Source: Leisingera daeponensis DSM 23529
GTDB lineage: Bacteria > Pseudomonadota > Alphaproteobacteria > Rhodobacterales > Rhodobacteraceae
Assembly (NCBI RefSeq): GCF_000473145.1
Contig: NZ_KI421500.1
Coordinates: 3,435,725-3,499,724 of the forward strand
Direction of reading: 5' to 3'
DNA: 64,000 bases
The number at the start of each line of letters is the position of its first letter. Position 1 is the first letter of the stretch. The notes beneath the pieces were generated by a model. That model ran no database searches, was not told where the DNA came from, and was given only the letters and a program-made list of their open reading frames with translations. The position numbers and the translations under genes are program-made. Below, in pieces: positions 9,936-62,464 of this stretch.

Positions 9936-9965
9936 GCGTCGGTTTTCCCTTGCTGTTGTTTGGAC

Positions 9966-9995
9966 CGGATACGCCGCAGGCAAGAAAGCGGATCA
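9966..9995 (-). promoter_or_regulatory. putative RpoE (sigma-E) promoter for the leftward lipid/photolyase operon
   Basis: On the minus strand TGATCC (9995-9990) is followed after exactly 18 bases by TATCCG (9971-9966). The other three elements in this island have the same -35, the same spacer and TAACCG or TAACCT at -10. It would start transcription about 25-30 bases before the FAD gene at 9935. It resembles the RpoE consensus known from Rhodobacter. Confidence 0.7.
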
Positions 9996-10025
9996 CCGCA
10001 TTCGCGATAAAACTGTGCGTGCGGG

Positions 10026-10055
10026 TGATCCGGGGCGGCGGCGGCTGCGTAACCT
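10026..10055 (+). promoter_or_regulatory. putative RpoE promoter for the DUF1365-SDR operon
   Basis: TGATCC at 10026-10031, 18-base spacer, TAACCT at 10050-10055. The -10 ends only 4 bases before the ATG at 10060, so the transcript is expected to be leaderless or nearly so. It lies 30 bases from the divergent element at 9966-9995. Confidence 0.72.
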
Positions 10056-10059
10056 GTGC

Positions 10060-47001: not shown

Positions 47002-47153
47002 GGCAAGGAATTCATCACCCATTTCTCCGGCTTATGCAGGATGGGCCGGATTGCGCCAGCACCCCCTGCGCGCCTCCCGTACACCCCCTGTGCACCCGCT
47101 TGGTGCGGTTTGCCGCAAATCCCGCGCTTTGCCCCGAATCTGAGGACAAATCC

Positions 47154-49628
47154 ATGTCAGACAATTTTGCCCAATCGACGCTCAACATCCACAAGGAGGA
47201 GAGCACCGGCGACAAAAAGCTGCCGAGCCACGCCAAGGCGGTGATCATTGGCGGCGGTGTGGTTGGCTGCTCGATCCTATTCCACCTGGCCAAGTTCGGC
47301 TGGAAGGACGTGGTGCTGCTGGAGCGCGACGAGCTGACCTCCGGCTCCTCCTGGCATGCGGCGGGGCAGATCCATACCATCAGCTCGGACCCGAACATCT
47401 CGCGGCTGCAATCCTACACCATTGATCTGTATAAGGAGATTGAGGAGACTTCGGGCCACTCTGTGGGCCTGCACATCACCGGCGGGTTTTATCTGGCGTC
47501 GAACAAGACCTGGTATGACTACCTGAAGCGGGAACGCTCCAAGGCGCGCTATATGGGGCTGCATCAGGAATTCATCAGCCCCAAGGAAGTGGCCGAGCGG
47601 CATCCGCTGATTGATCCCAAGCATTACCATGCCGCGCTATGGGATGATCAAGACGGCGATCTGGACCCGTCGGGCGCGACCTATGCCTTCGCCAAATCCG
47701 CCCGCGTGCATGGCGCGCAGTATTTCACCCACACGCCGGTGACCGCGACAACCCAGCGTGCCGATGGAAGCTGGGATGTGACCACCCAGCGCGGGGTGAT
47801 CAACGCGGAGCATATCGTGAACTGCGGCGGGTTGTGGGCGCGTGAGGTCGGGCACATGCAGGGCATCAACCTGCCGGTGCAGCCGATGGAGCACCATTAC
47901 CTGATCACCGACAAGATCGACGCGGTGGCCAACCACCCGACCCGCCTGCCGGCCGGGATCGATTATGAGGCGAACATCTACTTCCGGCAGGAACGGCAGG
48001 GGATGCTGCTGGGCACCTATGAGCCGAAGGGCACGCCCTGGAAAGTGGGCGGCACGCCCTGGGATTTCGGCCATGAGCTGTTGCAGCCGGATCTGGACCG
48101 GATTGCCGACCGTCTCGAGATGTCGTTTGAGCGCATTCCGGCCATCGGCGAGGCGGGGATCAAGGATATGATCAACGGGCCCTTCACATTTGGCCCCGAT
48201 GGCAACCCGATGATCGGCCCGGTGCCGGGGATGCGGAACTACTGGTGCGCGGTGGGCGTCATGGCGGGCTTCTGCCAGGGCGGCGGCGTGGGGCTGACCA
48301 TGGCCGAATGGATGATCGACGGCGAGCCGTCCATCGACGTCTGGGCGATGGATGTGGCGCGGTTTGGCGAGTTTGCGACCCCCGACTGGGGCACGGTGAA
48401 ATCGACCGAGAACTACGAGCGCCGCTTCGTGATGACATTCCCGAATGAAACCCTGCCCAAGGGGCGGATGCAGAAGACCACGGCCCTTTATGACCGCTTG
48501 GTCGCCAAGGGCGCGCGGATGGGGCAGGGGTTTGGCCTGGAGAACGCGCTGTGGTTTGCCGACGGGCCGGAGGACGCACATGAAGAGCCGACGTTTGAGC
48601 GCAACCGCAGCCACGATTATGTGGCGCGCGAGGTCAAGGCGGTGCGCGAGGCGGTGGGCGGCATCGAGATCGCCAACTTTGCCAAGCATGAGTTTAAAGG
48701 CGCGGGCGCGCGGGCTTATCTGGACCGCGTTCTGGCGGGGTATGTGCCGAAGCCGGGCCGCCTGACGCTGACGCCGATGCTGACGCCGAAGGGCAAGCTT
48801 TATGGCGATCTGACTGTGGCCTGTCTGGCTGAGGATCACTTCATGCTGTTCGGCTCCGGCGCGATGCAGGAGGCGCACCGCCGCTGGTTTGAGAAGGACC
48901 TGCCGGAAGATGTGAGGTATCAGAACGTCTCGGATGACTGGCACGGCATCGCGCTGTCGGGGCCGAAATCGCGGGAGCTGCTGGCCCGTATTACCCGCGA
49001 GGATGTCTCTGCCGAGGCGTTCAAGTTCCGTGACCTGCGCCAGACGTTCGTGGGCGGCGTGCCGGTGATCCTGAACCGGATCAGCTTCTCTGGCGAGCTG
49101 GGCTATGAGATCTATTGCAAGCCGCAGTACCTGCTGCGCCTGGCGGAAGCGGTCGAGGAGGCAGGCAGCGATCTGGGCTACCGCTGGTACGGGGCGCGGG
49201 CGCTGATGTCGATGCGGCTGGAGAAGGGCTGGGGTGTGTGGACGCTGGACTTCCGCCCGGATTTCGACGCGGCGGAAAGCGGCATGGAGGCCTTCATCAA
49301 CTGGAAGAAGGATTTCGTAGGCAAGGCCGCTGCGCTGAAGGCCCGCCAAGCCGGGGCAAGCCGAAAGCTGGTCACCATGACCATCGGTGTGGATGGCATC
49401 GATGTGTCGGGCGACGAGGCGATCCTGAAGGACGGCGCGGCGGTCGGCTACATCTCCTCAGGCGGGTATGCGCATCATGCGCAGGCTTCTATGGCGATGG
49501 GCTATGTCTCAGCTCAGCACGCGGTGGCCGGCACCAGGCTGCAGGTGGAGATCCTGGGCGAGATGTATGACGCCGAAGTGCTGGGCGCGCCGGTCTATGA
49601 CGCGGACGGCGCCAGAATGCGCGCCTGA
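47154..49628 (+). CDS. dimethylglycine/sarcosine dehydrogenase-family flavoprotein with GcvT domain
   Basis: An 824-residue two-part enzyme. The N-terminal DAO-type FAD domain starts with VIIGGGVVGCSILFHL, followed by the HAAGQIHTISSDPN loop, where a histidine covalently binds FAD in dimethylglycine dehydrogenase. The C-terminal half is a GcvT-like folate domain (LSGPKSRELLARI, FSGELGYEIYC, GARALMSMRLEKGWG). It oxidatively demethylates an N-methyl amine and hands the one-carbon unit to tetrahydrofolate. It lies 152 bases after the MttB homologue; that gap holds no gene. The precise substrate is not readable. Confidence 0.87.
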   Translation: MSDNFAQSTLNIHKEESTGDKKLPSHAKAVIIGGGVVGCSILFHLAKFGWKDVVLLERDELTSGSSWHAAGQIHTISSDPNISRLQSYTIDLYKEIEETSGHSVGLHITGGFYLASNKTWYDYLKRERSKARYMGLHQEFISPKEVAERHPLIDPKHYHAALWDDQDGDLDPSGATYAFAKSARVHGAQYFTHTPVTATTQRADGSWDVTTQRGVINAEHIVNCGGLWAREVGHMQGINLPVQPMEHHYLITDKIDAVANHPTRLPAGIDYEANIYFRQERQGMLLGTYEPKGTPWKVGGTPWDFGHELLQPDLDRIADRLEMSFERIPAIGEAGIKDMINGPFTFGPDGNPMIGPVPGMRNYWCAVGVMAGFCQGGGVGLTMAEWMIDGEPSIDVWAMDVARFGEFATPDWGTVKSTENYERRFVMTFPNETLPKGRMQKTTALYDRLVAKGARMGQGFGLENALWFADGPEDAHEEPTFERNRSHDYVAREVKAVREAVGGIEIANFAKHEFKGAGARAYLDRVLAGYVPKPGRLTLTPMLTPKGKLYGDLTVACLAEDHFMLFGSGAMQEAHRRWFEKDLPEDVRYQNVSDDWHGIALSGPKSRELLARITREDVSAEAFKFRDLRQTFVGGVPVILNRISFSGELGYEIYCKPQYLLRLAEAVEEAGSDLGYRWYGARALMSMRLEKGWGVWTLDFRPDFDAAESGMEAFINWKKDFVGKAAALKARQAGASRKLVTMTIGVDGIDVSGDEAILKDGAAVGYISSGGYAHHAQASMAMGYVSAQHAVAGTRLQVEILGEMYDAEVLGAPVYDADGARMRA

Positions 49629-50360: not shown

Positions 50361-50475
50361 GGTATTCAAGGGTTAGGTCCGGGTTCTGTCCACACAGATG
50401 CGTGAGTTGTCCCGGTTTCTCAGGAAACGTATTTTATTCTCGCTGGTTAGCTTGACGTTTGCTTCAATAAAAATG

Positions 50476-50495
50476 TTAACTGATCGGTGCATTAA
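50476..50495. promoter_or_regulatory. third TetR operator-like site before the tetR gene
   Basis: TTAACTGATCGGTGCATTAA repeats the AACNGATCGGT core of the two sites near 50314-50360, flanked by TTAA on both sides. It lies 19 bases before the tetR start at 50515, suggesting autorepression. Confidence 0.6.
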
Positions 50496-50514
50496 CTGCC
50501 CCGCTGGAGGCGCA

Positions 50515-51078
50515 ATGAGGCCGAACAAACGTGGCGAACTGATCCGAAAGGCGCTGGATCTGTTTTATGGGAACGGATTTCACGCCACTGGGATGGATCT
50601 GGTGGCGGCGGAGACCGGGGTGTCGAAAACCTCGATCTACAAACACTTCCGTTCCAAGGAGGAGCTGATCCTGGCGGTGCTGAAACTGCGGGACGAGGAT
50701 TTCCGCACCTGGCTGTACGGGCGGATGGAGGCGCGGGCGGATACCCCGCGCGGCCAGCTGGAGGCGTTGTTCGACGTTCTGCAGGAGTGGTTCGAACAGC
50801 CCGGGTTTCAGGGCTGCATGTTCATCAAGGCCAGCGCCGAGTATCAGTCGCCGGACGATCCGATCAACCTGCAGTCGGCAGAGCACAAGCAGGTGCTGCA
50901 GGCGCATTTCGCGCATCTGGCGGCCGGGGCCGGGGCAAGGGATCCGGACGCGCTGGCGCGGCAGCTGATGGTGCTGAAGGAGGGCGCGATCGTGCTGGCT
51001 GCCCTGACCCATAGCAGCGCCCCGGCCCGGGATGCCCGCACGGCGGCCGCGGCGCTGATTGACCAGGCAATCAGCTAG
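50515..51078 (+). CDS. TetR/AcrR-family regulator
   Basis: A 187-residue repressor. The helix-turn-helix is in FHATGMDLVAAETGVSKTSIYKHF (read in two parts, residues 19-42), followed by the all-helical ligand domain with a C-terminal segment QPGFQGCMFIKA, a block often seen in the subgroup that responds to electrophiles or quinones. I use the ATG at 50515 with TGGAGG upstream; the longer frame crosses the operator. It probably controls itself and the divergent DUF1348 gene. Confidence 0.87.
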   Translation: MRPNKRGELIRKALDLFYGNGFHATGMDLVAAETGVSKTSIYKHFRSKEELILAVLKLRDEDFRTWLYGRMEARADTPRGQLEALFDVLQEWFEQPGFQGCMFIKASAEYQSPDDPINLQSAEHKQVLQAHFAHLAAGAGARDPDALARQLMVLKEGAIVLAALTHSSAPARDARTAAAALIDQAIS

Positions 51079-51209: not shown

Positions 51210-52163
51210 ATGACCCCATTTTCCATCGCGGGCATCCAAATGCATGTGGACGCGCTGCATTCGAATGTCGACGCAATGCTTCACCGGATCGACGTGCTGA
51301 TGGCGCGCTTCCCCTGGACACAGATGGCTGTGTTCAGCGAACTGGCGCCCTACGGGCCGCTGACCAAATTCGCGCAGCCGCTGCACAACGAAGCGATTGA
51401 GCGGTTCTGCGCCGCGGCGGTGAAACACGGGATCTGGGTGGTGCCCGGCTCGATGTTCGAGGTCGCGGACTCCGGCAAGATCTACAACACCTCCTCGGTC
51501 ATCAATCCGCAGGGCGAGGTGGTCGCGGTCTACCGCAAGATGTTCCCGTTCCGCCCGTATGAGCAGGGCGTGGAGGCCGGCACGGAGTTCTGCGTGTTCG
51601 ACATTCCTGAGGTTGGCCGGTTCGGCCTGTCGATCTGCTATGACATCTGGTTCCCGGAAACCACCCGCCAGCTGACCAGCCAGGGGGTCGAGGTGCTGCT
51701 GCATCCGGTGCTGACCGGGACGGCGGACCGGGATGCCGAACTGTCCATCGCCCGCGCCACCGCGGCGCAGTTCCAGTGCTTCGTGGTTGATGTGAACGGG
51801 CTGGGCGCTGGGGGCGTGGGGCAGTCCTGTATCATCGATCCGTCGGCCACGGTGCTGCACCAGTCGGGCCGCCATGAGGACATGTTCCCGCTGGAGCTGG
51901 ACCTTGACCAGGTGCGCCGCCAGCGCGAGGTCGGCCTGAAGGGGCTGGGCCAGGTGCTGAAAAGCTTCCGCGACCGGGAGGCTGATTTCCCGGTATACGA
52001 CCGCGCCAGCGGGGCGGATGCTTACCTGCACACGCTGGGGCCACTGGAGATCCCGGTGCAGGGCTCGCAGGCGGGCCTGAATGCCCGCGCGCCGGGCGAC
52101 GGCGCAATCGGATTTGCCGAATTGCATCCAATACACTACGCTGAAAGAAAAGCAGGCGGTTGA
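51210..52163 (+). CDS. nitrilase-superfamily carbon-nitrogen hydrolase
   Basis: A 317-residue cytosolic hydrolase. The Glu-Lys-Cys triad is complete: Glu44 in FSELAPYG, Lys110 in YRKMFPFRP and Cys143 in SICYDIWFPE. Family members cleave or form amide bonds (amidases, carbamoylputrescine hydrolase, glutaminase subunits). It is the first of four co-directional genes; the next, a basic amino acid decarboxylase-like gene, starts 66 bases later. A polyamine-related amide would fit both, but the substrate is unknown. Confidence 0.85.
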   Translation: MTPFSIAGIQMHVDALHSNVDAMLHRIDVLMARFPWTQMAVFSELAPYGPLTKFAQPLHNEAIERFCAAAVKHGIWVVPGSMFEVADSGKIYNTSSVINPQGEVVAVYRKMFPFRPYEQGVEAGTEFCVFDIPEVGRFGLSICYDIWFPETTRQLTSQGVEVLLHPVLTGTADRDAELSIARATAAQFQCFVVDVNGLGAGGVGQSCIIDPSATVLHQSGRHEDMFPLELDLDQVRRQREVGLKGLGQVLKSFRDREADFPVYDRASGADAYLHTLGPLEIPVQGSQAGLNARAPGDGAIGFAELHPIHYAERKAGG

Positions 52164-52229
52164 TCAGTCTCATTTCTTAGTAGCCAGAGCCTTTTGATCT
52201 CCCGCCGATAACCAGGATGGGAGGTGCAT

Positions 52230-54992
52230 ATGCAAGTAATGGGCGACTATTACTCGGCGATCCAGCTGCGTCACGACCAGTGGACAACGCTGAGAGAGGT
52301 AACCGAAGCCCTGGCCAGTGCCCGAAAACCGAAACGTGAAGCAGCGCTCGAGACGAATGTCCGGGCGCTGTTTGATTTACTGGGTCCGATTGAGACCTAT
52401 TGGGCCTTTCCCGGTGTGCAGGCCTTTGAGCAGATCCGGCGCCAGTTCGAGCACGGGAATTACGCCGATGTGGCGTTTTCCGTCCAGCGCATCTGCCGGG
52501 CCTTGTCCACCGGTGCCTACCGGCGGCGGCATGTTCCGCTGGACCGCGACTCGGCGGATGCGGACGAGCACGAGGATGAGGTCATCCAGCCGCCCGAGGC
52601 GCGGGCGCTGGCCAAGCCCTATTTCGAGGTGCTGGTGGTCGACAAAGTCAACGAACACCAGGAGCGCTGGCTGCACAGCAACTTCAAGAAGATGCGGCGC
52701 CCGGAAGATCCGTTTCACTATGAAACCGTGGTGGTGCCCAGTCTGCAGGACGCGCTGATCGGGATCCTGTTCAACTACAACATTCAAGCCATCGTGGTGC
52801 GGCCGGGCCTCAAGTTCGACTCGAAGATGGAGATGTCGCTGCTGACCCGCTACCTGGACTGGGCCGGCGGCACCGAGGGCATTGAGGCGGTCCGTTCGCT
52901 CGACCACGGCCCGGCGCTGTGCCGGCTGGTGGCGAATGTCCGGCCGGAACTGGACGCCTATCTGGTCACCGACCGCTCGGTCGAGGAGATCGCAGGCCAT
53001 GACCTGGGGATCTGCCGCCGCGTCTTTTACAATCAGGAAGATTTCATGGAACTGCACCTCAATATCCTGAGGGGGGTGCAGGCGCGCTACAAGACGCCGT
53101 TCTTCACGGCGCTGGTCGAGTATTCCAAACAGCCGACCGGCGTCTTCCACGCGATGCCGATCAGCCGCGGCAAGTCGGTCTCGCGCAGCCATTGGATTCA
53201 GGACATGGGGGCGTTTTACGGCTCCAACATTTTCCTGGCCGAGACCTCTGCCACCTCCGGCGGGCTGGATAGCCTGCTGGAGCCGCACGGGCCCATCAAG
53301 CAAGCGCAGGAACAGGCCAGCCGTGCCTTCGGGTCAAAGCAGACTTTCTTTGCCACCAACGGCACCTCCACCTGCAACAAGATCGTGGTGCAGGCGCTGG
53401 TGCGGCCCGGCGATATCGTGCTGGTGGACCGCGACTGCCACAAGTCGCACCATTACGGGCTGGTGCTGGCGGGGGCGCAGGTGGTCTATCTCGACAGCTA
53501 CCCGCTGAATGAATACTCGATGTACGGGGCGGTGCCGCTGCGGGAGATCAAGCATATGCTGCTGCACCTCAAGGCGCAGGGCAAGCTGGACCGGGTGCGG
53601 ATGCTATTGCTGACCAACTGCACCTTTGACGGCATCGTCTACAACGTCGAGCGGGTGATGGAGGAATGCCTGGCGATCAAGCCGGACCTGATCTTCCTGT
53701 GGGACGAGGCCTGGTTCGCCTTTGCCCGGTTCAGCCCGCTGTACCGGCAGCGCACCGCCATGAACGCCGCCAATGTGCTGCGCGGGCGGCTGCGCAGCGA
53801 TGCCCACGCCAAGGCCTGGGAGGAGCAGCAGAAGCAGCTGAAGGATGCCAGCGAGGAGGAGTGGCTGAGCGCCAGGCTGCTGCCGCCGCCGGACGCGCGG
53901 GTGCGGGTCTATGCCACCCAGTCCACGCACAAGACGCTGACGTCGCTGCGGCAGGGGTCGATGATCCATGTGAACGATCAGGACTTCAAAGGCGAGGTGG
54001 AGGTGAGCTTCCACGAGGCCTACATGACCCACACCTCGACCTCGCCGAACTACCAGATCATCGCCTCGCTGGATGTGGGGCGGCGGCAGGTGGAGCTGGA
54101 GGGCTTCGAATTTGTCCACCGGCAGGTGGAGGCGGCGATGGCGATGCGGCGGGCGATCATGACGCATCCGCGGCTGAGCAAATATTTCAGGATCCTGACT
54201 GCCGCCGACATGATCCCGAGCGAGCACCGTCAAAGCGGGCTGGAAAGTTATTACGATCCCCAGCGCGGCTGGTCGGATGTCTGGGACAGCCTGGTGCATG
54301 ACGAATTTGTGCTCGACCCGACCCGGGTGACGCTGGCGGTGGGCGGTACCGGCTGGGACGGCGACACGTTCAAGACGCAGATCCTGATGGATAAATACGG
54401 GATCCAGATCAACAAGACCTCGCGCAACACGGTGCTGTTCATGACCAACATCGGCACCACGCGGTCCTCGGTCGCCTATCTGATCGAGGTTCTGGTGGAA
54501 ATCGCCACCGGTCTGGACGAATTGCTTGATGACGCTTCGATGATGGAAAAGCGCGGCTTCGAGAAGCGGGTTTCGAACCTCATGCACGACCTGCCGCCGC
54601 TGCCGGACTTCAGCCGCTTCCACGACGCCTTCCGCTCTGCTCCGGAAACGCCCGAGGGGGACATCCGCTCGGCGTTTTTCCTGAGCTATGAGGAAAACAA
54701 CTGCGACTATCTGGAGCTGGACGGGTCGATCAAGGCGGCAATGGAAAGCGGTCAGGAGGTGGTGTCAGCCTCTTTCATCATCCCGTATCCGCCGGGATTT
54801 CCGATCCTGGTTCCGGGGCAGGTCGTAAGCCAGGAGATTCTGGCCTTCATGCGGGCCTTGGACGTCAGCGAAATCCACGGCTACCGGGCCGACCTGGGGC
54901 TGCGCGTGTTCACCGAGGAGGCCCTGAAACAGCAGGCCAAGGCCAATCAGGCGCGGCTGAAGCTGAACGCGGCCCGGCACAAGATTTTCTGA
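52230..54992 (+). CDS. large Orn/Lys/Arg decarboxylase-family PLP enzyme
   Basis: A 920-residue PLP fold-type I enzyme of the basic amino acid decarboxylase family. The Schiff-base lysine is in TQSTHKTLTSLRQG (about residue 568), the substrate/PLP segment is TNGTSTCNKIV, and LWDEAWFAFARFSP carries the PLP-ring Asp. It is longer than biodegradative decarboxylases (700-760 residues), with an N-terminal extension of about 100 helical residues before the receiver-like wing and a polar insert around ERQ-rich KAWEEQQKQLKDASEE. ATG at 52230 has GGGAGG five bases upstream. Product would be an amine such as putrescine, cadaverine or agmatine; substrate unknown. It is followed after 15 bases by an ATP-grasp gene. 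Confidence 0.85.
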   Translation: MQVMGDYYSAIQLRHDQWTTLREVTEALASARKPKREAALETNVRALFDLLGPIETYWAFPGVQAFEQIRRQFEHGNYADVAFSVQRICRALSTGAYRRRHVPLDRDSADADEHEDEVIQPPEARALAKPYFEVLVVDKVNEHQERWLHSNFKKMRRPEDPFHYETVVVPSLQDALIGILFNYNIQAIVVRPGLKFDSKMEMSLLTRYLDWAGGTEGIEAVRSLDHGPALCRLVANVRPELDAYLVTDRSVEEIAGHDLGICRRVFYNQEDFMELHLNILRGVQARYKTPFFTALVEYSKQPTGVFHAMPISRGKSVSRSHWIQDMGAFYGSNIFLAETSATSGGLDSLLEPHGPIKQAQEQASRAFGSKQTFFATNGTSTCNKIVVQALVRPGDIVLVDRDCHKSHHYGLVLAGAQVVYLDSYPLNEYSMYGAVPLREIKHMLLHLKAQGKLDRVRMLLLTNCTFDGIVYNVERVMEECLAIKPDLIFLWDEAWFAFARFSPLYRQRTAMNAANVLRGRLRSDAHAKAWEEQQKQLKDASEEEWLSARLLPPPDARVRVYATQSTHKTLTSLRQGSMIHVNDQDFKGEVEVSFHEAYMTHTSTSPNYQIIASLDVGRRQVELEGFEFVHRQVEAAMAMRRAIMTHPRLSKYFRILTAADMIPSEHRQSGLESYYDPQRGWSDVWDSLVHDEFVLDPTRVTLAVGGTGWDGDTFKTQILMDKYGIQINKTSRNTVLFMTNIGTTRSSVAYLIEVLVEIATGLDELLDDASMMEKRGFEKRVSNLMHDLPPLPDFSRFHDAFRSAPETPEGDIRSAFFLSYEENNCDYLELDGSIKAAMESGQEVVSASFIIPYPPGFPILVPGQVVSQEILAFMRALDVSEIHGYRADLGLRVFTEEALKQQAKANQARLKLNAARHKIF

Positions 54993-55007
54993 AGGGAGAA
55001 ATAAGGT

Positions 55008-56468
55008 ATGCCATCTGGAGCACTGAACAATATCTCTGAAATACGCCGGCACTTCCACCGCAACGAGGATCCTGTGTATTTTGTCTCGGCAACCAATTTC
55101 AATCTGCTGGGCCTGGACGAGTGGTGCAAGAATTTCAAATACATATGCTACATTGACTGCTACGGCGGCAAGCACCCCAACGTGTTCTGCCCGTCCGAGC
55201 AGCCGCACGCGGAGTTCCAGTCGATCGAGGACATCAACAACTACCTCCTGCAGCACAAGGAGGTGGTCGAATGGATCAAGCGGCGCGGCGGCAAGCCCAA
55301 GTTCGTGTTCTTGATGTTCGACGAGGAGACCGAGCGGCTGGCCAAGGAGCTGGGCGGCGAGGTCTGGTTCCCCAGCGCCAAGCTGCGTCAAAGCATGGAC
55401 AACAAGATCGAAACGGTCCGGATCGGCAACAAGGCTGGTGTGCCTTCGGTGCCGAACGTGCTGGCGGAGGTCAAGGATTACGAGGATCTGAAGAAGACCT
55501 GCGAAAAGGCGGGCATCGGCCATGACGTGGTGCTGCAGTCCGCCTTTGGCGACAGCGGCCACACCACCTTCTTCATCAATTCCGAAGCCGATTTCCGCCG
55601 CCATGAGCATGAGATCGTCGGCGAGGGCGAGATCAAGATCATGAAGCGGATCGACTGCCGCGGCTCCGCGATCGAGGCCTGCGCCACCAAGGAGGGCACC
55701 ATTGTCGGGCCGCTGATGACGGAGCTGGTCGGCTTCAAGGAGCTGACCCCCTACCGCGGCGGCTGGTGCGGCAACGAGATCTTCTCAACCGCGTTTCCGC
55801 CCAAGACCCGCGAGCGGGCGCGCGAGCTGACCTTCAAGTTCGGCGAGCAGCTGCGCAAGGAAGGCTACCGCGGCTATTTCGAGCTGGATTTCCTGATCGA
55901 CAAGAAGACCGGGGACATCTGGCTGGGGGAATTGAACCCGCGCATCACCGGCGCATCCTCGATGACCAACCATGCGGCCTTTGCCCATGCGGACGCGCCG
56001 CTGTTCCTGTTCCATCTGCTGGAGTTCTCGAAGAAGAAGTTCAAGCTGGACGTGGCAGAACTGAACGACCGCTGGGCCGATCCCAAGATGATCGACAGCT
56101 GGTCGCAGATGGTGATCAAGCATACGGACGATTCAGTCGATATCGCCACGGAGGTGCCGGAGACCGGCATCTACCGCATGGCCGAGGACGGCAGCGTGCA
56201 GTTCGACCGTTTCGATTATCACCGACGTGCGGTCGAAAGCGAGCAGGAAGCGTTTTTCCTGCGTATCCTGCAGCCGGGCGATTACCGCTATGAGGGGGCC
56301 GATATCGGCATCCTGGTGACCCGCGGCCGGTCGATGACGCCGGGGTTCCAGCTGAATGACCGCGGCAAGCGCTGGATCGACGCCATCAAGAGCAACGTCA
56401 AAGCACGGCCGCTGCCGATGCAGGAGGCAGGGCCGGTGGTGTCCGATCCTGCCTTCAAGATCATGTAG
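55008..56468 (+). CDS. ATP-grasp ligase-like protein
   Basis: A 486-residue protein with the ATP-grasp layout: SMDNKIETVRIGNKAGVPSVPN marks the hinge before the ATP lid, a KIMKRIDCRGSAIEA strand follows, and the metal-binding end reads YFELDFLIDKKTG and WLGELNPRITGASS, with Glu and Asn ligands. It is related to biotin carboxylase and to amino acid ligases, but lacks a biotin carboxyl carrier partner. It probably activates a carboxylate as acyl-phosphate and joins it to an amine. It sits 15 bases after the decarboxylase and 13 before the C45 hydrolase. Confidence 0.82.
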   Translation: MPSGALNNISEIRRHFHRNEDPVYFVSATNFNLLGLDEWCKNFKYICYIDCYGGKHPNVFCPSEQPHAEFQSIEDINNYLLQHKEVVEWIKRRGGKPKFVFLMFDEETERLAKELGGEVWFPSAKLRQSMDNKIETVRIGNKAGVPSVPNVLAEVKDYEDLKKTCEKAGIGHDVVLQSAFGDSGHTTFFINSEADFRRHEHEIVGEGEIKIMKRIDCRGSAIEACATKEGTIVGPLMTELVGFKELTPYRGGWCGNEIFSTAFPPKTRERARELTFKFGEQLRKEGYRGYFELDFLIDKKTGDIWLGELNPRITGASSMTNHAAFAHADAPLFLFHLLEFSKKKFKLDVAELNDRWADPKMIDSWSQMVIKHTDDSVDIATEVPETGIYRMAEDGSVQFDRFDYHRRAVESEQEAFFLRILQPGDYRYEGADIGILVTRGRSMTPGFQLNDRGKRWIDAIKSNVKARPLPMQEAGPVVSDPAFKIM

Positions 56469-56481
56469 ACCCTGTGAGGGC

Positions 56482-57456
56482 ATGATCATCCGCTGGCGCG
56501 CCATCGACGAACCCCAGCCCGGTCCCAAGTGGGCCGGGCTGTTCCAGGAGTTCTGGCCGGACTACCACCAGTGGTGGATCCGCGAAGGCCCGGAAGCGCG
56601 CCCCGGTTACCTGGACAGCGTCAACGCGCTGAAGACGCATATGCCGGAGCTGCTGCCGCTCTATGAGGAGCTGTGCGATCTGGCGGGCGGGGCGGATCAC
56701 GCGGCGCGGTTTCTGAGCTTCTACTGCCCGCCGCCCTATCTGTCGGCCTGTTCCCAGGCGCTGTGGCCCGGGCCGGAGCCGGTTCTGGTGCGCAACTACG
56801 ACTACAGCGCTCATGCCTTTGACGGGGTGGTGATGCGCACCGAATGGCTGGGCCGCACGGTGCTGGGCACCAGCGACAGCCTGTGGGGCCTGGTGGACGG
56901 GATCAACGATGCCGGGCTGGCGGTGTCGCTGACATTCGGCGGCCGCCGGGTGGTCGGTGAAGGCTTCGGCGTGCCGCTGATCCTGCGCTATGTGCTGCAG
57001 ACTTGCGAAACCGCGGAAGAGGCCGGCGCGGCGCTGTCCCGTCTGCCGACGCATATGAGCTATAACGTCACCGTGGTCGACCGGGACCGCAAGTTCCTGA
57101 CCGCGTTCATGGCGCCCGACCGCAAGGCGGTGCTGAAACATGTGTCAGTCGCCACCAACCACCAGGAGAAAGTGGAGTGGGACAGCCATGCGCGGTTCAC
57201 GGCGACCGTGGAGCGGGAGCGGTTTCTGCTGCAGCGGCTGACGTTGCATGTGGAATCGGAAGAGAAGTTCATCGGCGCGTTTCTGAAGCCGCCGCTGTAT
57301 TCCTCGGCTTTCAGCGAGGGTTTCGGCACGCTTTACACGGCGGTCTACCGGCCCCGCAAGCTTGAGATGGAGCTCCGCTGGCCCGGCAGTGTCTGGCACA
57401 TGCCGCTGATGGCATTCGACGAGCGCACTCTGGCCGTGCAGGTGCCGGGGTTCTAG
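56482..57456 (+). CDS. C45-family Ntn-hydrolase/acyltransferase
   Basis: A 324-residue protein resembling the autoproteolytic C45 (acyl-CoA:6-aminopenicillanate acyltransferase-like) family. The likely nucleophile after self-cleavage is Cys90 in LSACSQALW, followed by VLVRNYDYS, the family-typical R-N-Y-D/W-D block; LWGLVDGINDAGLAVS and SYNVTVVDRD are further conserved blocks. Such enzymes hydrolyse or exchange amide bonds. It ends the four-gene operon. Whether it matures the operon product or cleaves it cannot be told. Confidence 0.78.
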   Translation: MIIRWRAIDEPQPGPKWAGLFQEFWPDYHQWWIREGPEARPGYLDSVNALKTHMPELLPLYEELCDLAGGADHAARFLSFYCPPPYLSACSQALWPGPEPVLVRNYDYSAHAFDGVVMRTEWLGRTVLGTSDSLWGLVDGINDAGLAVSLTFGGRRVVGEGFGVPLILRYVLQTCETAEEAGAALSRLPTHMSYNVTVVDRDRKFLTAFMAPDRKAVLKHVSVATNHQEKVEWDSHARFTATVERERFLLQRLTLHVESEEKFIGAFLKPPLYSSAFSEGFGTLYTAVYRPRKLEMELRWPGSVWHMPLMAFDERTLAVQVPGF

Positions 57457-57581
57457 CCGCCGGTCCGGTCCGGTCTGGCCGGCGGCGGATCACTCCCTGT
57501 CTGAAAGATTGCTGAGCTGCCCGGCCGCCGGCGGCCCCCCGCCTATCCCCGCATCAAAAGTCTGCACGTTCCGGGAAAATT

Positions 57582-57607
57582 GGAACTGACCGGGTGTGCT
57601 GTGAGTT
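57582..57607 (+). promoter_or_regulatory. possible EcfG-type general-stress promoter
   Basis: GGAAC (57582-57586), 17 bases, AGTT (57604-57607), close to the alphaproteobacterial GGAAC-N16/17-CGTT pattern. It lies about 40 bases before a 22-codon gene that starts a stress-like block. One of the four -10 bases differs, and I cannot see whether the genome encodes EcfG. Confidence 0.3.
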
Positions 57608-57649
57608 GTCCATGTATCGAACCGACCGATACAGCCCGGGGAGGAAGCC

Positions 57650-57718
57650 ATGCACAGTATCTTTTACATCATTGGCGTCGTTGTCGTCGTTCTCGCCTTG
57701 CTCAACTTTATCGCCTGA
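57650..57718 (+). CDS. 22-residue single-helix membrane peptide
   Basis: The short frame starts at an ATG preceded by a strong GGGGAGGAAG site (7 bases away) and encodes 22 residues, nearly all hydrophobic: MHSIFYIIG, five valines, then LALLNFIA. It would form one transmembrane helix. Strong ribosome site, clear stop and location 17 bases before the next gene support a real gene. It leads the operon of membrane and stress proteins. Function unknown. Confidence 0.72.
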   Translation: MHSIFYIIGVVVVVLALLNFIA

Positions 57719-57735
57719 TCAGAGGGAGTATTCAG

Positions 57736-58242
57736 ATGTCCGGAACAGACAAAATGAAAGCCGCCGCAAAAAACGTTGCCGAAGAGGCGAAGTCCGCTGC
57801 GGCAACCGCTGCCGAAACCGCCAAGAAGGAGGCGCAGCTGCGCGCCGAAGCCGCCAAGGAAAGCGTCGCAGACGAGGTGAAATCCGTAGCCTCGGCCCTG
57901 CGCACAGCCTCCAACGAGATGCGCAGCGGCTCGCCGCATGAACGCGCGATCGGCCAGGTGGCCGGCGCCCTGGCCGATGTGTCAGACTCGATCCGCAACC
58001 AGGACCTTGGCGACATGGTCCATTCGGTTTCGGATTTCGCCCGCAAGAACCCGGTCATGTTCCTGAGCAGCGCTGCGCTGCTCGGCTTTGCCGCCGCGCG
58101 CTTTGCCAAGGCGTCGGATAGCGGCCATCAGGACACCCCGCAGCTCCCTGCAGCGCAACCGCGTGCGGCTGCTCCTGCGGTCAGCCCCGCGCATCCGGCG
58201 GGCGCCTATCCGGTCACGCAGAACGTGGGGGATCCGAAATGA
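57736..58242 (+). CDS. DUF883-like membrane-anchored helical protein
   Basis: A 168-residue protein. The first 110 residues are an Ala/Lys/Glu-rich amphipathic coil (KAAAKNVAEEAKSAAAT), then FARKNPVMFLSSAALLGFAAARF gives one membrane helix, and the tail is Pro/Ala-rich. This matches the DUF883/ElaB-like plan of membrane-attached stress proteins. It overlaps the holin-family gene by four bases. Confidence 0.75.
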   Translation: MSGTDKMKAAAKNVAEEAKSAAATAAETAKKEAQLRAEAAKESVADEVKSVASALRTASNEMRSGSPHERAIGQVAGALADVSDSIRNQDLGDMVHSVSDFARKNPVMFLSSAALLGFAAARFAKASDSGHQDTPQLPAAQPRAAAPAVSPAHPAGAYPVTQNVGDPK

Positions 58243-58652
58243 CACAGACGAACCCCGGACCCGGCGGATCGCCGAATGCTGCCAGCATCGTGTCCGAAGC
58301 GCTGAACAACATCAGCTCGCTGATCCGCAACGAGCTGGCGCTTGCGCGGGCTGAGGTCAGCGAAAACCTCAACCGCGCCGCCGTGGCGCTGGGCCTGATC
58401 GTCGGCGGTGTCGTGGTGGCGCTGACGGCGCTGAATGTCCTGGCCGCGGCGCTGTCCGCCGGCCTGACCGAAGCCGGAATGGACCCGGGCTGGGCAGCCC
58501 TTCTGGTGGGCTTGGGCTTTGCCGCCGTGGCCTTTGGCATGATCGCCAAGGGAACCAACGACCTCAAGCTGTCGAGCCTGGCCCCGACCCGCACCGCTGA
58601 AAATGTGAAGCGCGACGCGCAATCCATTAAGGAGACGTACAATGACAAATGA
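58239..58652 (+). CDS. phage-holin-superfamily (DUF1469) membrane protein
   Basis: A 137-residue protein with an amphipathic N-terminal helix (SSLIRNELALARAEVSENL) and two membrane segments (VALGLIVGGVVVALTAL and WAALLVGLGFAAVAFGM). This is the common DUF1469/holin-3 layout. Despite the family name no phage gene is near; it forms part of a chromosomal envelope operon with DUF883-like and DUF3618 proteins. It overlaps the next gene by 11 bases. Confidence 0.8.
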   Translation: MTQTNPGPGGSPNAASIVSEALNNISSLIRNELALARAEVSENLNRAAVALGLIVGGVVVALTALNVLAAALSAGLTEAGMDPGWAALLVGLGFAAVAFGMIAKGTNDLKLSSLAPTRTAENVKRDAQSIKETYNDK

Positions 58653-59787
58653 CAGCCGTTCTGTGCATGAGATTGAGCGCGAGATTGAACGGGATCGCGC
58701 GCAGCTGACCAGCAACCTCGAACACCTGCAGAACAAGTTCTCCGTCGACGGTATCGTTCAGCAGCTGGGCGATCAGCTGCGTGAGCACGGCGGCGAGATC
58801 GGCAATGCCATCACCCGCACTGTCAAGGAAAACCCGGCGGCGGTGGTGCTGACCGGCGTCGGGCTGGCATGGATGATTTTCGGCCAGGGCCGTTCCGGCG
58901 CTAGCCGCGGCGATACCGGCCGTGACAGCAGCTGGGAAGACCGCCGGGCAGGCGGCAGCTATGGCGGGCACGCTTCCAGCGCGACGCTGGTCACGCGCCC
59001 CGATCCGCGCATGAAGGGCGGCACCGAAGGGGTTCCCGCCTGGGCGCACGACGATGATGACGATGGCAGCAGCCTGGCTGACCGCGCCGCCGGCGCCGCC
59101 GCATCGGCGCAGTCCAAGGCGTCCGCAGCAGGATCGGCGCTGCACGGCAAGGCAGCCGCGGCGGGCTCTGCCGTCAAGGATGCCGGTGCCGCCGCGATGG
59201 ACAAGGCAGCCGCTGCCGGACAGTCGGTCCGTGACGGCGCCTCCTCGGCGGCAGAAACCGCCCGGCTCCGGGCTGCGCGCCTGCGTGCCCGTCTGGCGGA
59301 AGGTACCGAGAACCTGTCCGAAGAGGCCAAGGCCCGCGTGATCGCGGCGCGCGAGGCCGCGATTGATGCCCGCCGCAAGGCCGCAGAGGCCCTGGCTTCC
59401 GGGTCGCGCCAATCGGCGGACTTCTATAACCGGCAGCCGCTGGTCGCGGGCGCGCTGGCGCTGGCGCTGGGCGCAGCGATCGGTGGCGCGCTGCCGCGCA
59501 CCCGCACCGAAGATGACATGCTGGGCGCCTACAGCGACAAGATGATGGAGCGCGCCGAAGCGATCCTCCGCGAGGAGCAGGAGAAGGCCGTCGCGGTGAT
59601 GCAGGCCGCCCGCCAGGAAGCTGAGACCATCGTCAGCGAGAAGCGTGAGGCCATGGACAGCGCGGCGCCGGAAGGCAAGACCGCAGCCCAGGCTGCTGCC
59701 GACGAGGTGAAGTCGGCGGGCAAGCGCATCGCCGGAGCGGCTGCCGACAAGGCCAAGGAAAAGGACCTCGGCAAGCCTACATCGTAA
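58642..59787 (+). CDS. DUF3618-domain envelope protein with long Ala-rich coil
   Basis: A 381-residue protein. The N-terminal DUF3618 region (HEIEREIERDRAQLTSNLE) is followed by a membrane segment (PAAVVLTGVGLAWMIFG), an Asp-rich linker (DDDDDGSS), a long Ala/Lys coil with apolipoprotein-like repeats (residues about 150-265), a second hydrophobic stretch and another charged coil (MERAEAILREEQEKA). It may scaffold the inner membrane. Function unknown. A perfect hairpin follows the stop. Confidence 0.8.
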   Translation: MTNDSRSVHEIEREIERDRAQLTSNLEHLQNKFSVDGIVQQLGDQLREHGGEIGNAITRTVKENPAAVVLTGVGLAWMIFGQGRSGASRGDTGRDSSWEDRRAGGSYGGHASSATLVTRPDPRMKGGTEGVPAWAHDDDDDGSSLADRAAGAAASAQSKASAAGSALHGKAAAAGSAVKDAGAAAMDKAAAAGQSVRDGASSAAETARLRAARLRARLAEGTENLSEEAKARVIAAREAAIDARRKAAEALASGSRQSADFYNRQPLVAGALALALGAAIGGALPRTRTEDDMLGAYSDKMMERAEAILREEQEKAVAVMQAARQEAETIVSEKREAMDSAAPEGKTAAQAAADEVKSAGKRIAGAAADKAKEKDLGKPTS

Positions 59788-59794
59788 GACAGAC

Positions 59795-59820
59795 CCGGAG
59801 GCTGCCTCGGCAGCCTCCGG
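59795..59820 (+). terminator. perfect hairpin between the DUF3618 and YihY genes
   Basis: CCGGAGGCTGC and GCAGCCTCCGG form an 11-bp stem with loop CTCG, but no T-run follows. It could end or only attenuate the upstream transcript, or stabilise its 3' end. Confidence 0.5.
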
Positions 59821-59851
59821 CCTTGCATGAAACGGCCGGGGAGGACGTGCC

Positions 59852-60799
59852 ATGGCACGCGGCAGGCAGGCAGATGCACCGCACAAGATCCCGCCCAAGG
59901 GCTGGAAGGATATCGCCCTGCGGGTCAAGGACGAGATTGCCGCGGACCACGTGGGGCTGATCGCTGCCGGCGTTGCCTTTTACGGGCTGATGGCGCTGTT
60001 TCCGGCGATCACCGCGCTTCTGGCGATTGGCGGCCTGATGGTCGAGCCCGCCCAGATCGTCGATCAGATTTCGCAGCTTGAAGGGGTTGTGCCGGACGAG
60101 GTGATGGAGATCATCATCGGCCAGGCGACCCAGGTTGCAGGGTCTCGGGAAGGCGGGCTGGGACTGGCCGCGGTGGCAGGTATCCTGATCGCGCTCTATT
60201 CGGCCTCCAAGGGCATGAACAGCCTGATCGAAGGCATGAACGTGGCCTATGACGAGGAGGAGAAGCGCGGCTTCTTCATGAAGACCTTTGTCACCCTTGT
60301 TCTGACGCTGTTTCTGATTGCCGGCCTGCTGATGGGTTTGCTGGCGGCGCTGGCGGTCCCTTCGGTCATCGCGCTGGTTGACGCCGGCCCCGTAATCGAA
60401 GCGCTGGGCACGCTGCTGGCCTGGGGCGTGCTGCTGGTGATGACCATGGCCGGGCTTGCGGTGCTCTACCGCTATGGCCCCTCGCGCGACAAGCCTGAGC
60501 TGCTGTGGACGTCGCCCGGCGCGGCCGCCGCCTGTGTGCTGTGGCTCGCAGGCTCCGCCGGGTTTGCGTTTTATGTCGGCAACTTCGGATCCTACAACGA
60601 GAGCTTCGGCGCGCTGGCCGGGGTCGTGGTCTTGCTGATGTGGCTGTGGATTTCCGCCTTCATCGTGCTGCTGGGGGCGGAGATCAACGCCGAAGTCGAG
60701 GCGCAGACCACCTATGACACGACCGTCGGCCCGGATGAGCCGATGGGCGAGCGCGGCGCGGTGAAAGCCGACAAGCTGGGCGCGCAGCAGGGCAGCTGA
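59852..60799 (+). CDS. YihY/BrkB-family inner membrane protein
   Basis: A 315-residue protein with about six membrane helices. Typical features: DHVGLIAAGVAFYGLMALFPAITALLAI near the N terminus, the YSASKGMNSLIEGMNVAYDEEEKR loop and WISAFIVLLGAEINAEVE near the end. The family was once thought to be RNase BN, which it is not; its role is unknown. GGGGAGG precedes the ATG. It continues the envelope/stress block. Confidence 0.9.
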   Translation: MARGRQADAPHKIPPKGWKDIALRVKDEIAADHVGLIAAGVAFYGLMALFPAITALLAIGGLMVEPAQIVDQISQLEGVVPDEVMEIIIGQATQVAGSREGGLGLAAVAGILIALYSASKGMNSLIEGMNVAYDEEEKRGFFMKTFVTLVLTLFLIAGLLMGLLAALAVPSVIALVDAGPVIEALGTLLAWGVLLVMTMAGLAVLYRYGPSRDKPELLWTSPGAAAACVLWLAGSAGFAFYVGNFGSYNESFGALAGVVVLLMWLWISAFIVLLGAEINAEVEAQTTYDTTVGPDEPMGERGAVKADKLGAQQGS

Positions 60800-60922
60800 G
60801 GCGGCTGGAGCCGCCCTGCGCCTCGCAGAGACGCAGCGGGGGGAAGCGGCCGCAACCGGCAGCCAGTGAAACTGCCGCCGCAGATACAAGTTTTTTCCCT
60901 GGTGATTGAAGAGAGGTCCGGA

Positions 60923-62464
60923 ATGACACGCTCCAACGAAACCAAAGACACCCCGCCGACCACCACAGATGCAGGCCAGCGCGTTCACAGCGACGAGCAC
61001 TCGCTGACCGTGGGGCCGGACGGGCCGATTGTGCTCAACGATCATTACCTGATCGAACAGATGGCAAACTTCAACCGGGAGCGCATCCCGGAGCGCCAGC
61101 CCCACGCGAAGGGCGGCGGCGCATTCGGCTATTTCGAGACCACGCAGGACGTGTCGAAGTACACCAAGGCCAAGATCTTTCAGCTCGGCGCGAAATGCGA
61201 TGCCGTTGTCCGCTTCTCGACGGTGGCCGGCGAGCGGGGCAGCCCCGACACCTGGCGCGATCCGCGCGGCTTTTCGGTGAAAATGTACACCGAGGACGGC
61301 AACTTCGACATGGTCGGCAACAACACGCCCGTCTTTTTCATCCGCGATCCGATGAAATTCCAGCATTTCATCCGCAGCCAGAAACGCCGGGCCGACAACG
61401 ACCTGCGCGACCATGACATGCAGTGGGACTTCTGGACCCTGTCGCCCGAAAGCGCGCATCAGGTGGCCTATCTGATGGGCGACCGGGGCATCCCCAAGAC
61501 CTGGCGCGAGATGAACGGCTATTCCAGCCACACCTATTCGCTGGTGAATGCCGAAGGGGAGAAGTTCTGGGTCAAGTTCCACTTCCACACCGATCAGGGC
61601 GATGGCAACGCGTACCTCAGCCAGGAGGAGGCTGACAAGCTGGCCGGCAGCGACGGCGACTATCACCGGCGCGATCTGTTCAACGCGATCCGCGACGGCA
61701 ACCCGCCCAGCTGGACGCTGAAATGGCAGATCATGCCCTATGAGGAGGCCAAGACCTACCGCCTCAACCCCTTTGACCTGACCAAGGTGTGGCCGCATGC
61801 GGATTATCCGCTGATCGAGGTCGGCAAACTGGTGCTGGACCGGAACCCCACCGATTTCCACACGGAAATCGAACAGGCGGCGTTTGAGCCGAACAATATG
61901 GTGCCCGGGGTTGGCCTGTCGCCGGACAAGATGCTGCTGGCGCGGGGCTTTTCCTACGCGGACGCGCACCGGGCGCGGCTGGGCGTGAACTACAAGGAAA
62001 TCCCGGTGAACAAGGCGCAATGCCCGGTCCACAGCTATTCCAAGGACGGGGCGGGACGCACACAGAAGGTCGCGGATCCGGTCTATGCGCCCAATTCCTA
62101 TGGCGGTCCGGCAGCACAGCCCCCCTCTGGCCCCGAGGCGGGCCTGTGGCATACGGACGGCGGCATGGTCCGCCAAGCCTATACGCTGCGGGAAGACGAC
62201 GATGACTGGAGCCAGGCCGGCAAGCTGGTCCGCGAGGTGATGGACGATGCCGCCCGTGACCGGCTGGTGTCGAATGTGGTCGGGCATCTGAGCGACGGTG
62301 TCAGCGAGAAGGTGCTGCAGCGCGCGTTCGATTACTGGCGCAACATCGACGGCGAGACTGGCGACAGGATCGAAGCCGGTGTGCGGGATAAGCTGGGCGG
62401 CGTGTCGGAAGCGCCGGGTCTGGCCTCCGCCGAAAGCATCAGCGGCAGCGGGGCCGGCGGATAG
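60923..62464 (+). CDS. monofunctional haem catalase
   Basis: A 513-residue small-subunit catalase. [19 protein letters not shown] holds the catalytic histidine, [19 protein letters not shown] surrounds the distal site, [14 protein letters not shown] has the catalytic asparagine, and [14 protein letters not shown] carries the haem-ligating tyrosine. It converts hydrogen peroxide to water and oxygen. The C terminus is slightly longer than usual, ending in a Ser/Gly-rich tail. I used the ATG at 60923, ten bases after GAGAGG. It follows the envelope block with a 123-base gap. Confidence 0.95.

What the first reader, a model, noticed from the sequence alone, without database searches (positions are those of the whole stretch)
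51210..57456. Four-gene operon: nitrilase, large PLP decarboxylase, ATP-grasp ligase and C45 Ntn-hydrolase
Seen: four co-directional genes with gaps of 66, 15 and 13 bases, each with intact catalytic residues (Glu44-Lys110-Cys143; PLP lysine near 568; ATP-grasp metal ligands; Cys90 nucleophile). Known: the families decarboxylate basic amino acids, form amide bonds by acyl-phosphate, and hydrolyse or exchange amides. Inference: the set could make an amine, couple it to a carboxylate and trim or transfer the acyl part, giving an amide such as a polyamine conjugate. I know of no described pathway with this combination. The decarboxylase is about 180 residues longer than standard ones.
Basis: partly seen in the sequence, partly recalled or inferred. 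Interest (0 to 1): 0.78.

Follow-up and report, generated by a model that had tools for sequence, protein, structure and literature searches.

The report
Uncharacterised four-gene amino-acid breakdown operon
A bacterial gene set that travels together across many species probably breaks down a basic amino acid by capping and later uncapping one of its nitrogens, but the compound it handles has not been identified.

Summary
Nitrilase (NIT), large OKR-type PLP decarboxylase (DEC), ATP-grasp protein (ATPG) and C45 Ntn-hydrolase form a tight operon at 51210-57456. Of 198 genomes of the family, 32 hold all four; none has DEC without the other three. In the nearest 80 loci 74 are contiguous in that order.

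NIT, ATPG and C45 are the core in this family: four genomes keep them without DEC. In 4 of 9 DEC-less loci read, another way of shortening a basic amino acid stands there: a 2-monooxygenase-type gene, or an arginine-to-GABA set. Frequent neighbours are GABA transaminase, importers and PuuR-like regulators.

That points to catabolism toward GABA or 5-aminovalerate rather than to a polyamine conjugate. Best reading: ATPG caps an amino group, DEC or a substitute shortens the chain, an amide is hydrolysed, C45 removes the cap, as in the Puu pathway. Capping, substrate and acyl group are inferred. DEC's nearest solved relative, M. tuberculosis Rv2531c, has no known activity. Ten searches of an open-access library listed no paper on the set.

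The parts
51210..52163 (+). NIT: nitrilase-superfamily amidase, Glu44-Lys110-Cys143
   Evidence: part of the core trio
52230..54992 (+). DEC: 920-aa fold-type I OKR-family PLP decarboxylase (long form, Rv2531c-like); PLP lysine 568
53931..53933 (+). codon of PLP lysine 568 in DEC
54411..54413 (+). codon of Asn728 in DEC, aligned with LdcC Glu526 (Thr in AdiA, Glu in SpeF)
55008..56468 (+). ATPG: ATP-grasp enzyme of NCBIfam PRK06524 ('biotin carboxylase' by name), read here as a carboxylate-amine ligase
56482..57456 (+). C45: Ntn-hydrolase of the AAT/C45 family, nucleophile Cys90 (codon 56749-56751)
50398..51078 (+). TetR-family regulator upstream; candidate local regulator only
   Evidence: also upstream in L009 (Leisingera aquaemixtae); no match over 80 bits in the other 79 of the 80 loci

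Best explanation
A catabolic operon that turns a basic amino acid (arginine family most likely; ornithine or lysine possible) into an omega-amino acid of the GABA / 5-aminovalerate type. ATPG uses ATP to put an acyl cap on an amino group. DEC removes the alpha-carboxyl from the amino acid or its capped form. An amide intermediate is opened by NIT (in some lineages an amidase-signature enzyme stands there). C45 removes the cap, and GABA transaminase and semialdehyde dehydrogenase finish the job. Shown: the operon, its family memberships, its conservation, the genes found where DEC is missing and the GABA-type neighbours. Inferred: direction, substrate, the capping role, the order of steps. My odds: catabolic and linked to GABA-type acids 0.7; ATPG/C45 as cap-on/cap-off pair 0.4; arginine family rather than lysine 0.55.
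For: (1) Core trio: in 198 genomes ATPG is in 36, and all 36 have NIT and C45; DEC is in 32, all inside those 36.
(2) Of 9 loci read with the trio but no DEC in the stretch, 4 hold another set that shortens a basic amino acid. L132 has C45-NIT followed by a gene whose best solved match is L-amino acid oxidase/monooxygenase 3we0, E 1.2e-287; its lysine activity is recalled. L003, L004 and L106 hold ATPG-C45 inside a set with AruI, ALDH, D-amino-acid dehydrogenase, racemase and a ureohydrolase, with NIT divergent. Scored in L003: AruI 737 bits (cut-off 500), racemase nearest Orr but under its cut-off (393 of 480), ureohydrolase nearest guanidinobutyrase 3nio at 1.1e-152, 511 bits against 206 for the best agmatinase.
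(3) Four neighbouring class-III aminotransferases (L040, L116, L123, L133) were scored and all 4 pass the GABA-transaminase cut-off TIGR00700; L125 has SSADH over its cut-off next to DEC.
(4) In the nearest 80 loci a gabT match occurs in 46, TRAP permease in 43, TAXI binding protein in 40, PuuR-like in 19.
(5) The NIT function seems replaceable: 6 of 6 rhizobial loci with DEC-ATPG-C45 have no NIT match in the stretch, and in the 4 read with annotation an ABC importer and an amidase follow. L125 has an amidase-signature gene and no NIT.
Against: No capped intermediate is known. In 5 of the 9 DEC-less loci (L005, L133-L136) I identified no enzyme that stands in for DEC, though not every gene there was named. 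For L003, L004, L005 and L106 only the plasmid stretch was read, and Roseateles XES5 has a DEC elsewhere on the same plasmid. A GABA aminotransferase does not oxidise a diamine, and no putrescine oxidase or aminoaldehyde dehydrogenase was seen among the frequent neighbours scanned. In the Shinella-type locus the guanidino group already protects the nitrogen, so a cap seems superfluous; NCBIfam names its ureohydrolase agmatinase (212 bits, cut-off 174). L133 has a CoA-transferase nearest succinate-glutarate CoA-transferase (533 bits, under the 750 cut-off; its homologue in L134 is 83% alike), which points to lysine; three other CaiB-type neighbours matched no NCBIfam model at 1e-50. L102 and L126 have DEC-ATPG-C45 beside proteins that look secreted by eye, without NIT or gabT in the stretch. 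ATPG's fold ranks biotin carboxylase first. In the window no amino-acid-type importer or gabT was found among the flanking genes scanned.
Confidence: 0.38

Rival explanations
1. Biosynthesis: DEC makes an amine, ATPG couples it to a carboxylate, C45 and NIT trim or exchange the acyl part, and the amide is kept or exported.
For: Chemistry of the families fits; L102 and L126 keep DEC-ATPG-C45 beside secreted-looking proteins without gabT in the stretch; R. leguminosarum copies lie next to nifHDK in 2 of the 4 annotated plasmids read, a place for symbiosis-specific products.
Against: Importers, GabT and GABA-type regulators are frequent; no exporter of small molecules was recognised among the 10 most frequent flanking clusters scanned, though three are lipid-transport-type PqiA/MlaD/ABC_trans_aux parts; DEC is dispensable.
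Confidence: 0.2
2. DEC acts on glutamine or a gamma-glutamyl amide: ATPG makes the gamma-glutamyl amide of an amine, DEC turns it into a GABA amide, NIT or C45 releases GABA.
For: Asn instead of Glu/Thr at the LdcC Glu526 position in 20 of 20 DEC rows and in Rv2531c; DEC relatives of about 50% stand beside AspT-type antiporters in L107-L109; product would be GABA, as the neighbours suggest; glutamate synthase-like or glutamate dehydrogenase genes nearby.
Against: Does not explain the monooxygenase-type and 2-ketoarginine sets found where DEC is missing; a DEC copy in Roseateles XES5 lies among arginine genes.
Confidence: 0.15
3. Ordinary arginine decarboxylase pathway: DEC makes agmatine, a deiminase makes N-carbamoylputrescine, NIT is AguB.
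For: Best NCBIfam model for NIT is AguB (69 bits).
Against: 69 bits against a cut-off of 410; no agmatine deiminase (PF04371) in the window's genome; ATPG and C45 unexplained.
Confidence: 0.05
4. ATPG is a genuine carboxylase (carboxyphosphate chemistry) as its name says.
For: NCBIfam name; fold ranks biotin carboxylase first, with PurK close.
Against: QVEH segment replaced (its role is recalled); no biotin carrier or carboxyltransferase among the four genes.
Confidence: 0.07

Closest known systems
Puu pathway (PuuABCD, gamma-glutamylputrescine route to GABA; recalled)
   Same: ATP-dependent capping of an amine, chain oxidation, Cys hydrolase uncapping, GABA transaminase, HTH-cupin regulator of PuuR type
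   Different: PuuA is a glutamine-synthetase relative and PuuD a class-I amidotransferase fold (recalled); here ATP-grasp and C45; no PuuB/PuuC in the operon; DEC and NIT added
Lysine DavBA-DavTD route / arginine 2-monooxygenase route (recalled)
   Same: nitrilase-family amidase next to a basic-amino-acid 2-monooxygenase-type gene in L132; class-III transaminase and semialdehyde dehydrogenase near the set in other loci
   Different: no ATP-grasp or C45 enzyme; in the window DEC stands in place of the monooxygenase
Arginine transaminase/dehydrogenase route (AruI, KauB, GbuA)
   Same: occurs as one set with ATPG-C45 in Shinella-type loci
   Different: complete on paper without ATPG, C45 or NIT
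M. tuberculosis Rv2531c (PDB 9n0n, 9n0o, 9n0p)
   Same: near full-length match to DEC, 834 bits over residues 14-915 of a 922-aa reading
   Different: activity unknown; its gene neighbours were not examined here
Glutathionylspermidine synthetase/amidase (recalled)
   Same: ATP-grasp amide synthase paired with a cysteine amidase on a polyamine
   Different: one fused protein, other hydrolase fold, no decarboxylase

Membership tests
Nitrilase superfamily (PF00795) | Pfam match over cut-off and Glu-Lys-Cys | tested here: met
   113.4 bits, cut-off 23.2; residues invariant in 17 of 17
AguB, N-carbamoylputrescine amidase | score over TIGR03381 cut-off | tested here: not met
   69.2 bits against 410.25
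OKR decarboxylase (PF01276) | Pfam match over cut-off, PLP lysine in place | tested here: met
   260 bits, cut-off 27; Lys568 in STHK
Lys/Arg/Orn decarboxylases of the LdcC, AdiA, SpeF type | score over the NCBIfam models | tested here: not met
   best 216 bits against 968; Asn at LdcC Glu526
Lys/Arg/Orn decarboxylases of the LdcC, AdiA, SpeF type | decarboxylates Lys, Arg or Orn | not testable with these tools
   needs enzyme assay
PRK06524 / NF005096 | score over cut-off | tested here: met
   753.6 bits, cut-off 684
Biotin carboxylase (functional) | bicarbonate segment QVEH (role recalled) and a biotin carrier partner | tested here: not met
   segment reads TGAS; no carrier or carboxyltransferase among the four genes; a carrier elsewhere in the genome was not looked for
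ATP-grasp amide ligases (PylC, BesA type) | fold | tested here: inconclusive
ATP-grasp amide ligases (PylC, BesA type) | forms an amide | not testable with these tools
   needs enzyme assay
C45 / AAT Ntn-hydrolases | score over NF040521 and PF03417 cut-offs, Cys nucleophile | tested here: met
   175 bits, cut-off 85; 105.3 bits, cut-off 23.2; Cys90 invariant in 24 of 24
C45 / AAT Ntn-hydrolases | autoproteolysis at Cys90 | not tested
   needs protein
Puu pathway | PuuA- and PuuD-family enzymes in the set | tested here: not met
   none among the four genes
Agmatine deiminase pathway | agmatine deiminase (PF04371) in the genome | tested here: not met
   0 of 1 genome; 5 of 14 controls ring

The most novel reading that the evidence does not exclude
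DEC is not a plain decarboxylase but a PLP-dependent, O2-using decarboxylating oxygenase that turns the amino acid straight into the shortened amide. It would be an unrelated replacement for the FAD lysine/arginine 2-monooxygenase, whose relative stands next to NIT in L132 where DEC is missing; NIT then hydrolyses that amide. ATPG and C45 supply a new ATP-grasp/Ntn capping cycle.
Probability: 0.12. Interest if true: 0.85.

Novelty: new variant of a known kind. Interest (0 to 1): 0.6.

Why it matters
A nearly all-or-none gene set with two orphan enzymes (ATPG, C45) and a decarboxylase branch with solved structures but no known reaction would gain a testable pathway. It would link amino-acid nitrogen use in marine roseobacters and in nitrogen-fixing Rhizobium plasmids, and suggest a function for the long-form decarboxylases to which Rv2531c belongs. 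If the capping cycle is right, ATP-grasp plus C45 is an independently evolved answer to the problem that the Puu pathway solves.

Tried and rejected
Rejected: the AguB reading; a true carboxylase. The PGE-to-PGQ change near the C-terminus of DEC was first taken for the distal-amino-binding Glu; the alignment showed it is another position, and Glu526 aligns with Asn728.

Led nowhere: ten paper searches. Searches returned no paper; (PDB codes) listed one relevant paper of 4; one search listed 15 of 29; no paper listed was about this gene set by title or abstract. The library is open-access only. Of papers I read passages of PMC12910592, PMC4569260 and PMC8305402 (an ATP-grasp gene of P. phymatum, not shown to be this family). 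The Rv2531c structure paper is not held. C45 had no solved relative by sequence at E 0.001. A ureohydrolase (45% to the Shinella one) lies upstream of NIT in L119 but with another gene between, so it was not counted. The class-III aminotransferase of L100 was not counted as GABA transaminase, and the SSADH-like gene of L100 is under its cut-off (595 of 646).

Rows dropped: the short or duplicate loci L001, L089-L097, L114-L115, L128-L131, the E. coli loci L138-L140 and the own-genome stretches L141-L144 were left out of the table. Of 9 hits, neighbourhoods of 7 were fetched (own genome and G045 left out). Of 8, 6 were fetched; of 8 (the rest were the window or already fetched). The 80 loci are the best 80 of 548, all 85% or more alike in ATPG, so their neighbours are not independent. 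L137 (NIT and C45 at a contig end, ATPG not visible) was left out of the 9 DEC-less loci.

Full report
What is there. By family they are a nitrilase-superfamily amidase (NIT), a long OKR-type PLP decarboxylase (DEC), an ATP-grasp protein of NCBIfam PRK06524 (ATPG) and a C45 Ntn-hydrolase. Residues that the families need are intact and invariant in the relatives aligned: NIT Glu44, Lys110, Cys143 in 17 of 17, C45 Cys90 in 24 of 24, ATPG D294, E308, N310 in 21 of 21. DEC has Lys568 in the STHK motif. The nearest named ATPG proteins are from Leisingera.

Conservation. In 198 genomes drawn from the family, one per genus, ATPG is in 36, NIT in 37, C45 in 38 and DEC in 32. All 32 DEC genomes have the other three, and 4 genomes (G854, G858, G917, G995) have the trio without DEC. 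Two genomes, G848 and G882, have a NIT and C45 match or a C45 match without ATPG. Reading the coordinates, 29 of the 32 have all four on one contig and strand (G953 with a 2.4-kb gap before C45), and in 3 (G895, G904, G936) the set is split over contigs. Among the nearest 80 loci of the named genome collection (best 80 of 548), 74 have NIT-DEC-ATPG-C45 in that order on one strand, with alignment-to-alignment gaps of at most 389, 95 and 100 bases. Five of the other 6 are cut by contig ends and one, L051, lacks a NIT match.

Further out ATPG is rare: 9 of 299 genomes in the phylum sample, 8 of 289 in the class, 8 of 274 in the class of G086. Of the 19 neighbourhoods fetched from these three searches, 11 show all four genes (L098-L101, L103, L104, L118-L120, L122, L123), sometimes in another order or orientation. 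Three are cut before NIT or DEC could be seen (L116, L117, L127). Four show no NIT match in the stretch (L102, L124, L125, L126; L126 has only 0.7 kb upstream, and L125 has an amidase-signature gene). One is a remnant (L121). The order thus changes while the set mostly stays.

What the neighbours say. In the 80 loci, tblastn matches within the fetched flanks are gabT 46, TRAP permease 43, TAXI binding protein 40, Usp 29, glutamate-synthase-like 27, PuuR-like 19, CaiB-type 12, oligopeptide-type binding protein 9 (Pfam names). These loci are close relatives, so the counts are not independent, and a gabT match can be another class-III aminotransferase. In more distant loci the theme returns: gabT near the set in L116 and L123, SSADH beside DEC in L125, gabT with a PuuR-like gene in L133 and L134, and a GntR-aminotransferase (GabR-like) regulator in L005 with a homologue in L008. 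Four of 4 gabT genes scored pass the TIGR00700 cut-off; the aminotransferase of L100, scored, does not show that family among the 25 listed. This is a GABA-type catabolic setting.

What stands where DEC is missing. Nine loci hold the trio with no DEC match in the stretch: L003, L004, L005, L106 and L132-L136. In L003, L004 and L106 (Shinella, Sinorhizobium RAC02, Roseateles XES5 plasmids) ATPG-C45 sit inside a set with ureohydrolase, AruI, ALDH, D-amino-acid dehydrogenase and racemase, with NIT divergent: on paper a complete arginine-to-GABA route. Scores were taken in L003: AruI and the dehydrogenase pass their cut-offs, the racemase is nearest Orr but under its cut-off, and the ureohydrolase is far nearer guanidinobutyrase than agmatinase among solved structures although NCBIfam names it agmatinase. 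In L132 C45 and NIT are followed on the same strand by a gene whose best solved match is an L-amino acid oxidase/monooxygenase (3we0, E 1.2e-287); such enzymes make amides that nitrilase-family amidases open (recalled). L133 and L134 have the trio with TRAP importers, gabT and a CoA-transferase (in L133 nearest succinate-glutarate CoA-transferase but under its cut-off), which leans to lysine. In L005 and L133-L136 I identified no stand-in for DEC, though not every gene was named. For the plasmid loci a DEC elsewhere is possible; XES5 has one on the same plasmid, apart from the trio and among arginine genes. DEC also occurs apart from the trio beside AspT-type antiporters in L107-L109. A NIT-like frame of 42% stands next to an amine-type ABC importer in L145, with AruI about 5 kb away.

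DEC's substrate. DEC matches the M. tuberculosis protein Rv2531c over nearly its full length (834 bits). That protein has cryo-EM structures but no known reaction (PMC12910592, passages), and its knockout did not impair growth on arginine as described in passages of PMC4569260. At the position of LdcC Glu526, Thr in AdiA and Glu in SpeF, 20 of 20 DEC-family rows have Asn, as has Rv2531c. That Glu526 binds the distal amino group is recalled. This argues against a plain lysine or ornithine decarboxylase and leaves arginine, a capped amino acid or glutamine-like substrates open. The genome has no agmatine deiminase match but four ureohydrolases, one 61% identical to the Shinella ureohydrolase and one 56% to the arginase of XES5.

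Rhizobium. On four annotated R. leguminosarum plasmids, DEC-ATPG-C45 is followed by an oligopeptide-type ABC importer, an amidase and an RpiR regulator. In two of the four (OyaliB, Vaf10) the set lies beside nifHDK, and in the other two near a glutamate-type dehydrogenase. No NIT match was found in these or in L006 and L007. Some copies may be decaying: DEC is annotated in two pieces in Vaf10 and in the second OyaliB region L007, which also holds transposases and only part of C45, and the DEC beside nif in OyaliB is 788 aa.

Evidence against my reading is listed with it: no capped compound is known, a GABA aminotransferase does not supply the oxidation that a diamine would need, five of nine DEC-less loci show no stand-in, the lysine-type CoA-transferase conflicts with arginine, and the L102/L126 group does not look catabolic. 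The window's own operon has no amino-acid-type importer or gabT among the flanking genes scanned.

Novelty. Ten searches of an open-access library listed no paper on this gene set; subscription papers are outside it. The parts belong to known families, so I call it a new variant of a known kind.

Noticed in passing
L121 (G476:C1:4197000-4216900), 9017-10746: Remnant of the operon: the start of a TAXI-type protein runs in frame into the last ~190 residues of ATPG, followed by an open C45 frame; looks like a deletion of TRAP, NIT, DEC and half of ATPG (or an assembly error).
   Followed up: no
L145, 4863-5705: Ensifer plasmid: a NIT-like frame on + lies under a 'hypothetical protein' annotated on the - strand, next to an amine-type ABC importer; the annotation may be on the wrong strand.
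   Followed up: no
L113, L153: R. leguminosarum DEC-ATPG-C45-importer-amidase set directly beside nifHDK; in L151 and L152 near a glutamate-type dehydrogenase.
   Followed up: partly
L107, L108, L109: DEC relatives of about 50% without the trio stand beside AspT-type antiporters (with an aspartate decarboxylase gene in two of three), as in an acid-stress decarboxylase/antiporter pair.
   Followed up: partly
L144, 9386-10519: A second C45 homologue (42%) in the window's genome outside the operon; in Sulfitobacter (L110) its relative follows a PHB-depolymerase-family esterase gene.
   Followed up: no
L102, L126, L127: DEC-ATPG-C45 (L127: ATPG-C45 at a contig end) next to secreted-looking proteins, no NIT or gabT match in the stretch: possibly a different use of the same enzymes.
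   Followed up: partly
window 36649-40101, -: 1150-aa serralysin-type (M10) metallopeptidase-like protein with 24 RTX repeat matches.
   Followed up: no
window 57580-62464, +: Run of genes after the operon: unnamed 220-aa protein, holin-X family, DUF3618, BrkB family, catalase.
   Followed up: no
window 45481-49628, +: MttB-family methyltransferase followed by a DAO/GcvT-type oxidoreductase, a methylated-amine-type pair.
   Followed up: no
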